Assembly (NCBI RefSeq): GCF_001870905.1
Contig: NZ_LNDC01000034.1
Span: 1 to 35,069, forward strand
Source of the DNA: Geitlerinema sp. PCC 9228
GTDB taxonomy: Bacteria > Cyanobacteriota > Cyanobacteriia > Cyanobacteriales > PCC-9228
Length of the DNA stretch: 35,069 bases
Direction: 5' to 3'
The position numbers and the translations under genes were made by a program. A model generated the notes under the pieces. The model saw only the letters and a list, made by a program, of their open reading frames with translations. It was not told the origin of the DNA and searched no databases. How positions within the stretch are numbered: the stretch's first letter is position 1; every line of letters starts with the position of its first letter. This document shows, piece after piece, positions 10,005 through 11,446 of the stretch.

Positions 10005-10259
10005 ATTTTCCACACGCGATCGCATAAGCTTGAGGGCAGCCAACCAACTCGGAGAATCTCCAAATCCGTATTTTCCCGATAGGTAGAAAACCGATCTCCG
10101 AGAAAACGCAAGTAGGCGGCGATCGCAAATGGCAGTTTGATAGGAATGTGTCCGTTTTGTCAGTACAATGTATTGGCAAAAAACCGAAAAACTATCTAGA
10201 TTGTCAAGCCTTGTAACTCAGTTATCATACCCCATTAGAAGCATTGGCAAGGGTTGGTT

Positions 10260-10499
10260 ATGAGCGAAGCCAAGCAAAACCAATCTTCTGGGGTTCGTGT
10301 GTTCATGACAGTTCCCGAACATCGAGAATGGTACTGCCAAGGCGGTCGTCGCATTAAAGATATTCTGGAAGAGTTGCAGCTAAATCCAGAAGCAGTCATC
10401 GCCATTTGTGGGGATACCTTACTGACGCCTGACGAAGTGGTTCGCGATGGTACCGAGTTAGAAGTTCGTTCGGCGATTTCAGGAGGAAATGCCTTATGA
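10260..10499 (+). CDS. MoaD/ThiS/TtuB-like sulfur carrier
   Basis: This is a 79-residue ubiquitin-fold sulfur carrier. The family pattern is visible: a beta strand (VRVFMTVPEH), the helix RIKDILEELQLNPEAV, GDTLLTPDEVVRDGTELEV and a C-terminal Gly-Gly (75-76). Unlike standard carriers the Gly-Gly is not terminal: Asn-Ala-Leu follows. Its stop codon overlaps the start of the tRNA thiolase gene (ATGA), so it is most likely the TtuB-type donor for that enzyme. The ATG at 10260 has AAGGG six bases upstream; a TTG six bases earlier is a less likely start. Carriers of this fold need activation at a terminal Gly-Gly, so tail removal may be required (inference). Confidence 0.8.
   Translation: MSEAKQNQSSGVRVFMTVPEHREWYCQGGRRIKDILEELQLNPEAVIAICGDTLLTPDEVVRDGTELEVRSAISGGNAL
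10481..10486 (+). promoter_or_regulatory. Ribosome-binding site of ttuA inside the Gly-Gly codons
   Basis: The bases AGGAGG make an ideal Shine-Dalgarno sequence 9 bases before the ttuA ATG. They overlap the GGA GGA codons for Gly75-Gly76 of the sulfur carrier. The three-residue tail of the carrier is the spacer between this site and the overlapping ATGA. Confidence 0.7.
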
Positions 10500-11446
10500 A
10501 ATGCAAAAAGTGCCGGCAAAAAGCGGTTATCGAACTCAAACGCCACAACAGCGCTTTCTGCCGTGAGCATTTCTTGGAATATTTCCAAAATCAAGTCAAG
10601 CGTACCATTAAAAAATTTAGCATGTTCCGCCACCGCGATCGCGTTTTGGTCGCTATTTCTGGAGGCAAAGACAGCCTCGCCTTGTGGGATGTACTTTTGC
10701 AACTAGGTTACCAAGCGGATGGTTTATACATAGATTTGGGAATTGGTGAATACTCGCAAACCTCAGGTGAAAAAGCGCAAAAATTTGCCGCACAACGCAA
10801 CGCCCAACTGCGCTACGTATCTTTAGCGGATAAATACGGTTTTGATATTCCCGATGCTACCCAGTATACCAACCGACCGGCCTGTTCTGCTTGTGGGTTG
10901 AGCAAGCGATACCTGTTCAATCGCGAGGCCTTTGATGGCGGTTACCATGCGATCGCGACTGGGCACAATTTAGACGACGAAGCGGCTACCCTGTTGGGCA
11001 ATGTATTGGGTTGGAATACGGAAGCCCTAGCCCGGCAATCGCCAGTTCTCGAAGGTAGCAAAAAAGGATTTGCCCGCAAGGTAAAACCGTTAATTCGGCT
11101 TTCGGAACGGGAAACCGCCGCCTACTGCGTACTTACTGGCATTGACTATATTGTCGAGGAATGTCCCAATGCGCTGGGGGCACGTTCCCATTTTTACAAA
11201 GAACTGCTCAACAATCTAGAAACAGAATCCCCTGGCATGAAACAGAAATTCCTCATGGAATATTTGGAACGTGGCAGCCACTACTTTACCCGCGACGATG
11301 CCACCGAACTGAATACCTGTCAAAGTTGCGGACATCCCACCAGTGGTGATATTTGTGCTTTCTGCCGCATGACCGCACAGCTGCTATCGAAAAAATTGCA
11401 CGACGATCCCATTGACGCTCTCTTTTCGTTACCTACTTACTTTTAA
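10496..11446 (+). CDS. ttuA: tRNA 2-thiouridine synthetase TtuA family
   Basis: This is a 316-residue tRNA thiolase of the TtuA/TtcA/NcsA family, which adenylates a uridine and replaces its 2-oxygen with sulfur using a [4Fe-4S] cluster. The N-terminal zinc ribbon (CKKC, then CREH), the PP-loop SGGKDS at 55-60, cluster cysteines Cys130 and Cys133 (CSAC) with Cys223 (EECPNA), and a C-terminal zinc ribbon (CQSC, then CAFC) are all present. The two zinc ribbons, the family length and the adjacent ubiquitin-like carrier favour TtuA (2-thio-ribothymidine at tRNA position 54) over TtcA. The ATG overlaps the carrier gene stop and uses the AGGAGG site within it. The exact tRNA position modified is inferred from the family. 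Confidence 0.85.
   Translation: MKCKKCRQKAVIELKRHNSAFCREHFLEYFQNQVKRTIKKFSMFRHRDRVLVAISGGKDSLALWDVLLQLGYQADGLYIDLGIGEYSQTSGEKAQKFAAQRNAQLRYVSLADKYGFDIPDATQYTNRPACSACGLSKRYLFNREAFDGGYHAIATGHNLDDEAATLLGNVLGWNTEALARQSPVLEGSKKGFARKVKPLIRLSERETAAYCVLTGIDYIVEECPNALGARSHFYKELLNNLETESPGMKQKFLMEYLERGSHYFTRDDATELNTCQSCGHPTSGDICAFCRMTAQLLSKKLHDDPIDALFSLPTYF

What the first reader, a model, noticed from the sequence alone, without database searches (positions are those of the whole stretch)
10260..10510. Sulfur carrier ends Gly-Gly-Asn-Ala-Leu, and the Gly codons double as the ttuA ribosome site
Sulfur carriers need a terminal Gly-Gly for adenylation. Here a three-residue tail follows. The codons GGA GGA form AGGAGG, the Shine-Dalgarno of ttuA, and the tail is the spacer to the ATGA overlap. 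The tail may be a by-product of this coding economy and would need trimming, as by JAMM-type peptidases in other systems.
Basis: partly seen in the sequence, partly recalled or inferred. Interest (0 to 1): 0.55.

Follow-up and report, generated by a model that had tools for sequence, protein, structure and literature searches.

The report
Capped TtuB sulfur carrier before ttuA
A small sulfur-carrier protein that helps modify transfer RNA is made with three extra residues after its essential Gly-Gly end, because the same DNA letters also start the next gene; related bacteria show the same arrangement, and most of those with such a tail also carry a protease that could cut it off.

Summary
The carrier (10260-10499) is a TtuB relative ending Gly-Gly-Asn-Ala-Leu. 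AGGAGG (10481-10486) lies in its Ser-Gly-Gly codons, 9 nt before the ttuA ATG, and the genes overlap by ATGA.
Across 144 TtuB loci, mostly outside cyanobacteria, where this pair is very rare, the tail varies freely. All 50 four-base overlaps carry a tail of at least 2 residues; 37 of 80 pairs without that overlap also carry one. The first Gly codon is GGA/GGG far more often than expected only at ribosome-site distance from ttuA (54 of 79, expected 29). So the coding economy is real and general. The overlap forces a tail, reuse of the Gly codons alone does not, and overlap is not the only source of tails.
Trimming is well supported, but by inference. A JAMM protease with an intact motif lies beside the MoeB-rhodanese E1 in this genome. 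JAMM is found with 62 of 70 tailed and 19 of 47 tailless TtuBs. The residue after Gly-Gly is usually small (75 of 96), as if read by a protease; this window's Asn is an exception. JAMM trimming of capped carriers is known elsewhere. Cleavage was not tested.

The parts
10260..10499 (+). ttuB-like sulfur carrier, 79 aa, ends SGG-NAL (TTG at 10254 would add two residues)
10482..10487 (+). Gly-Gly codons GGA GGA (residues 75-76), invariant SGG in the 17 aligned relatives
10481..10486 (+). AGGAGG, putative Shine-Dalgarno of ttuA, 9 nt before its ATG
   Evidence: enrichment over loci
10488..10496 (+). three-codon tail Asn-Ala-Leu, also the spacer to the ttuA start
10496..10499 (+). ATGA stop/start overlap
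10496..11446 (+). ttuA-like tRNA-5-methyluridine(54) 2-sulfurtransferase, 316 aa
10473..10510 (+). possible RNA hairpin AUUUCA...UGAAAU that would cover the SD and the ATG (weak, not conserved)

Best explanation
This is a ttuB-ttuA operon for 2-thiolation of tRNA uridine 54. Translation of ttuA is started at, or re-started from, AGGAGG inside the Gly-Gly codons of ttuB. Because the two genes overlap by ATGA, the stop codon of ttuB cannot stand directly after Gly-Gly, so the carrier is made with a short cap (here Asn-Ala-Leu) that is first of all the spacer between ribosome site and start codon. The cap has to be removed before the MoeB-rhodanese E1 can adenylate and thiocarboxylate the terminal Gly and before TtuA can use it. 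The likely remover is the genome's JAMM peptidase, encoded beside that E1. Shown: the sequence anatomy, its recurrence and codon bias in relatives, the presence of JAMM and E1, the JAMM/tail co-occurrence and the small-residue bias after Gly-Gly. Inferred: that trimming happens, that JAMM does it, and that translation is coupled.
For: Anatomy. TtuB/TtuA identity. Gly1 GGA/GGG at ribosome-site distance 54 of 79 against 29.2 expected, not at longer distance. 50 of 50 four-base overlaps have tails of 2 or more, with independent-branch support. In T. thermophilus the TtuB C-terminus coordinates the TtuA Fe-S cluster (PMC7138817, passages) and its terminal Gly is acyl-adenylated (PMC3980101, passages), so a cap should block both. 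JAMM beside MoeB-rhodanese, the motif HSHx7SxxD intact in the printed sequence. JAMM with 62 of 70 tailed and 19 of 47 tailless TtuBs, stratified by phylum p 7e-5. First tail residue small in 75 of 96 against 38% expected and 35 of 74 at the second; holds at <55% identity, 13 of 17. Precedents: capped carriers PtmS2/PtmS3 and QbsD (PMC6006322 section 7); JAMM deletion in T. thermophilus roughly halves thiouridine (PMC3980101 passages). The three other carriers found in this genome end exactly at Gly-Gly, so TtuB is the only capped one of the four.
Against: The tail/JAMM link on independent branches is only suggestive (about 7.4: 1.4, median p 0.07, range 0.039-0.51), and within the loci alone it is not significant (32 of 38 against 7 of 12, p 0.10). 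Eight tailed TtuBs had no strong JAMM hit, one of them (L164, G1367) on a long contig. JAMM was found in no ttuBA flank and is common without TtuB (8 of 14 control genomes rang), so it has other work. The window's own first tail residue, Asn, is not in the small class. Cyanobacteria use SD motifs sparingly, though more at overlaps (PMC6728339 passages). No cleavage was tested.
Confidence: 0.65

Rival explanations
1. The cap is a selected propeptide: it keeps new TtuB from being activated or conjugated until a protease releases it, as with ubiquitin-family precursors. The overlap is incidental.
For: Tails occur in 37 of 80 pairs without the four-base or longer overlap. The first tail residue is constrained to small residues in both overlapped (38 of 50) and non-overlapped (35 of 44) loci.
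Against: Tail length and sequence are otherwise free. 46 of 144 loci have no tail at all. Tail and overlap go together on independent branches.
Confidence: 0.15
2. The tail is removed by an unspecific carboxypeptidase or another endoprotease, not by JAMM.
For: Eight tailed genomes without a strong JAMM hit; JAMM is never beside ttuBA; tail sequences are diverse.
Against: JAMM/tail co-occurrence; known JAMM trimming of capped carriers (PMC6006322) and of a MoaD-MoaE fusion (PMC8832034 passages). Several of the eight genomes are MAGs that may be incomplete (completeness not reported for them).
Confidence: 0.15
3. The tail stays on and the protein works anyway, or this copy of the pair is inactive.
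For: TtuB/TtuA is rare in cyanobacteria, so a recent or useless acquisition is conceivable.
Against: Both genes are intact, with invariant SGG. The pair has host-like base composition and two GCGATCGC sites in ttuA. A second cyanobacterium keeps the pair with a different, longer tail. Known chemistry needs the terminal Gly.
Confidence: 0.05

Closest known systems
TtuB/TtuA of Thermus thermophilus
   Same: Sequence (5ztb, E 4e-14), fold, the C-terminal SAISGG, and the partner TtuA.
   Different: The solved T. thermophilus TtuB chain ends at Gly-Gly; here Asn-Ala-Leu follows and the two genes overlap.
Capped sulfur carriers QbsE/QbsD and PtmS2, PtmS3/PtmS1 (JAMM)
   Same: One or a few residues after Gly-Gly, with a JAMM metalloprotease in the genome (PMC6006322 section 7; the name QbsE is recalled).
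   Different: Those serve natural-product thioacids and PtmS2 is clustered with its JAMM. Here the client is the tRNA carrier and JAMM lies on another contig.
HcyS/HcyD of Wolinella succinogenes (recalled, no call)
   Same: A JAMM-type enzyme removes a single Ala after Gly-Gly; Ala is also the commonest first tail residue in TtuB (42 of 96).
   Different: That carrier serves methionine synthesis.
MoaD-MoaE fusions cut by JAMM (Deinococcus DRJAMM)
   Same: JAMM exposes the terminal Gly of a beta-grasp carrier (PMC8832034 passages); fused TtuB-TtuA frames L012 and L015 look like the parallel case.
   Different: There the cap is a whole enzyme domain, here three residues.
ATGA overlapping gene pairs with an SD inside the upstream gene
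   Same: General re-initiation architecture (PMC6728339 passages).
   Different: Here the SD coincides with the functionally essential last two codons, so the overlap changes the C-terminus of the upstream product.

Membership tests
TtuB sulfur carriers | sequence similarity over the beta-grasp domain | tested here: met
   (5ztb, E 4e-14; 5gha, 5.8e-14)
TtuB sulfur carriers | beta-grasp fold closest to TtuB | tested here: met
   (ranks 1-5 are TtuB chains)
TtuB sulfur carriers | C-terminal Gly-Gly | tested here: inconclusive
   Gly-Gly present and SGG invariant in 17 aligned rows, but not terminal in the gene product
TtuB sulfur carriers | genomic link to TtuA | tested here: met
   ttuA overlaps by 4 nt
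TtuB sulfur carriers | forms a thiocarboxylate and donates sulfur to U54 | not testable with these tools
   needs biochemistry
ThiS/MoaD family (PF02597) | score over the curated cut-off | tested here: not met
   18.1 bits against 22.5
TtuA (PF22082, PF01171) | LIM-like N-terminus and PP-loop domain over cut-off | tested here: met
   44.7 against 27 and 37.8 against 27 bits
TtuA equivalog NF049949 (Pyrococcus type) | score over the curated cut-off | tested here: not met
   302.9 against 450 bits, best model but under cut-off
Capped sulfur carriers trimmed by JAMM | residues after Gly-Gly | tested here: met
Capped sulfur carriers trimmed by JAMM | JAMM peptidase in the genome with an intact motif | tested here: met
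   motif as in the PMC300881 abstract shown in the listing
Capped sulfur carriers trimmed by JAMM | JAMM clustered with the carrier gene | tested here: not met
   other contig; in no fetched ttuBA flank
Capped sulfur carriers trimmed by JAMM | cleavage shown | not testable with these tools
   needs purified proteins or mass spectrometry

The most novel reading that the evidence does not exclude
In a large share of bacteria with ttuBA, the carrier for tRNA thiolation is made as an inactive precursor whose cap was imposed by reuse of its Gly-Gly codons as the ribosome site of ttuA plus the ATGA overlap. The operon's translational coupling thereby made tRNA thiolation depend on a ubiquitin-type JAMM protease, which in turn constrains the residue after Gly-Gly to be small. 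JAMM presence would predict which lineages may carry a cap.
Probability: 0.45. Interest if true: 0.6.

Novelty: new variant of a known kind. Interest (0 to 1): 0.5.

Why it matters
It would link three things usually treated apart: gene overlap and ribosome-site placement, the C-terminal chemistry of ubiquitin-like sulfur carriers, and the reason many bacteria keep a JAMM peptidase. It also predicts that recombinant TtuB cloned as annotated from such species will be dead unless the cap is removed or JAMM is supplied.

Tried and rejected
Comparison across cyanobacteria alone: too few cases, so other phyla were used. That the second cyanobacterial pair (L083, G115) is a contaminant: rejected, since its contig is close to four other stretches of that genome in GC and GCGATCGC density and that genome has the same JAMM-MoeB neighbourhood. 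JAMM inside the ttuBA operon: not found. A conserved hairpin covering the SD: present in the window (z about -2 to -3.3, with stretches I chose by eye) but not in relatives (mean z -0.31, n 79) and not in the longer fold (z -0.07). Promoter-like sites at shuffle level; six terminator-like sites against 2.6 in shuffles, not followed up. Literature searches for capped TtuB or for the overlap listed no paper describing a cap on TtuB; this covers only the open-licence library and the listings shown.

Rows dropped and choices. Table of 144 loci: left out L003 (contig edge, no carrier), L136 and L161 (no SGG read there; L136 was read by hand as tailless and used in the JAMM test), and duplicates L019, L084, L089, L122, L123, L152, L163. 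In one search the starts of L053 and L059 were set by hand. For the JAMM test I gave 50 of the 80 genomes: all 12 whose carrier was read as tailless plus 38 tailed, chosen by me, not drawn at random. 'Strong JAMM' means best E under 1e-15, chosen after seeing that values fell either below that or above 1e-8 (weaker hits taken as RadC-like, from recall). Fused frames L012 and L015 count as tailed there. Phylum labels of loci are taken from record titles or from the phylum searches. The tree is a quick one with 48 of 132 inner branches starred.

Full report
What is there. The window's carrier gene runs from ATG 10260 to TGA 10499 and ends Ser-Gly-Gly-Asn-Ala-Leu; ttuA starts at 10496 inside the ATGA overlap. 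AGGAGG spans 10481-10486: the last base of the Ser codon TCA, GGA, and the first two bases of the second GGA. The spacer to the ATG is 9 nt: the last base of the second Gly codon and the tail codons themselves. The last sense codon must end in A to make the ATG, which TTA (Leu) does.

Identity. The carrier matches T. thermophilus TtuB (5ztb, E 4e-14; the aligned chain ends exactly at its own Gly-Gly), misses the ThiS cut-off (18.1 against 22.5 bits), and its AlphaFold model (mean pLDDT 82.4, residues 75-77 under 50) finds TtuB chains at ranks 1-5. The next gene passes PF22082 and PF01171; its best NCBIfam model is the tRNA-5-methyluridine(54) 2-sulfurtransferase, under the curated cut-off (302.9 against 450).

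Host and rarity. The window contig carries 64 GCGATCGC sites (my count of the list), two of them in ttuA, which from recall is a cyanobacterial hallmark; the pair's GC (0.483) is close to the window's (0.469). TtuB was found in 2 of 195 genomes of the order (the window's own included), 1 of 388 of the class (its own) and TtuA, at a strict E of 1e-60, in 1 of 145 of the class (its own). The second cyanobacterium (L083, genome G115) has the same arrangement with GGA GGG and an 8-residue tail that runs into ttuA, and its genome has JAMM next to a MoeB-rhodanese gene too.

Comparison. A ttuA search in genome contigs gave 80 loci, mostly actinobacterial MAGs. Profile searches with alignment A1 (SGG invariant, tail not) gave matches in 51 of 301 Chloroflexota genomes (E up to 1e-3), 10 of 297 in the phylum of an Acidobacteria MAG and 35 of 398 in the phylum of Hydrogenibacillus (both at E up to 1e-9); loci of the best 30, 10 and 30 were read. 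After dropping duplicates and unreadable ends, 144 loci were tabulated: 98 with residues after SGG, 46 without. Of 132 pairs with a placed ttuA start and no fusion, 50 overlap by 4 nt: 41 have a 2-residue tail, 3 a 3-residue tail (the window among them) and 6 longer; none has less than 2. Two overlap by more, both with longer tails. Of the other 80 (gap -1 or more), 43 have no tail and 37 have one. On independent branches of a ttuA tree, overlap and tail of 2 or more change together about 7.6 times and never oppositely (median p 0.008). So the overlap forces the tail, but tails also exist without it.

The Gly codons as ribosome site. Where the motif lies 4-12 nt from the ttuA start, the first Gly codon is GGA or GGG in 54 of 79 loci against 29.2 expected from the other Gly codons of the same genes (z 6.0); where it lies farther off, in 14 of 56 against 21.7. 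Near loci include tailless ones in which the stop codon sits in the spacer (for example L169, L172, L175), and the window's own genome has such a case: moaD ends GGT GGA GGT TGA just before moaE. The economy is therefore wider than this locus, and compatible with either end. A survey of 720 genomes reports that cyanobacteria use SD motifs seldom for leading genes but amply at overlapping pairs (PMC6728339, passages), so AGGAGG here is plausible as a re-initiation site. In the window the site could fold into a hairpin with the start codon, but this is not conserved.

The cap and its removal. In T. thermophilus the terminal Gly of TtuB is adenylated and thiocarboxylated (PMC3980101, passages) and its C-terminus binds the Fe-S cluster of TtuA (PMC7138817, passages); a cap should prevent both. 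Capped sulfur carriers that need a JAMM protease are known: QbsD, and PtmS1 with PtmS2/PtmS3, capped with MV and C (PMC6006322, section 7). The window's genome has one JAMM, with motif HSHx7SxxD, directly before a MoeB-rhodanese gene; Iyer et al. 2006 list this JAB plus E1-rhodanese pair in several cyanobacteria (PMC1779556, passages). The three other carriers found in this genome end exactly at Gly-Gly, so TtuB is the only capped one of those four.

JAMM and tails. A strong JAMM hit (E under 1e-15) was found in 62 of 70 genomes with a tailed TtuB and 19 of 47 with a tailless one (count); stratified by phylum the odds ratio is 7.9 (p 7e-5). By group, tailed/tailless with JAMM: Bacillota 5 of 6 / 7 of 26; Chloroflexota 19 of 20 / 6 of 10; Actinobacteria 27 of 32 / 6 of 9; Acidobacteria 9 of 9 / 0 of 2; cyanobacteria 2 of 2 tailed; one Rokubacteria MAG tailed without. 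On independent branches the trend is 7.4: 1.4 (median p 0.07), so relatedness may account for part of it; in the loci alone it is not significant. Eight tailed genomes show no strong JAMM. JAMM has other clients, since it is found without TtuB (8 of 14 control genomes rang, among them E. coli) and lies in no ttuBA flank.

The residue after Gly-Gly. In the 96 tailed, unfused loci it is Ala, Gly, Ser, Thr or Cys in 75 (Ala in 42; Pro in none, 8.7 expected), against 38% expected from all-frame triplets of the same loci, 35 of 74 at the next position and 6 of 20 at the third. The bias holds with overlap (38 of 50) and without (35 of 44), and after thinning to under 55% identity (13 of 17). This looks like a cleavage preference and is the strongest sign that the tail is read as protein and cut right after Gly-Gly. 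The window's Asn is outside the small class. Two actinobacterial loci have TtuB and TtuA in one open frame (L012, L015), the extreme form of a cap, similar in kind to the MoaD-MoaE fusion cut by DRJAMM (PMC8832034, passages); both genomes have JAMM, but their internal ttuA starts could also be used.

Verdict. The by-product idea is right for the overlap class, including this locus, and incomplete as a general rule. Trimming, most likely by the JAMM next to the E1, is the best explanation; it rests on co-occurrence, residue bias and precedent, not on a cleavage test.

Noticed in passing
window 10260-11446: ttuB-ttuA, a pair known for thermophile tRNA thiolation, is almost absent from sampled cyanobacteria (2 of 195 in the order, 1 of 388 in the class); nearest ttuA relatives of the two cyanobacterial copies are Acidobacteria MAGs and Hydrogenibacillus, which suggests lateral transfer.
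   Followed up: partly
L012 2297-3490, L015 2270-3505: TtuB and TtuA in one uninterrupted frame in two actinobacterial MAGs; TtuA has an in-frame ATG behind GGAGG in L012.
   Followed up: partly
L086 1477-1736: In the window's genome moaD ends GGT GGA GGT TGA, so its Gly codons also form GGAGG shortly before an ATG of moaE, without a tail.
   Followed up: yes
window 10473-10510: Hairpin AUUUCA...UGAAAU that would cover both the SD and the start of ttuA; low energy for its size, not conserved in relatives.
   Followed up: yes
L085 1489-1764: A third MoaD/SAMP1-like carrier (ends AVAGG) just after a threonine-synthase-like gene (that name from recall of the sequence type); client unknown.
   Followed up: no
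L164, genome G1367: A TtuB with a one-residue tail (Arg) in a genome whose contig is over 2.6 Mb and in which no strong JAMM hit was found: a test case for other proteases.
   Followed up: no
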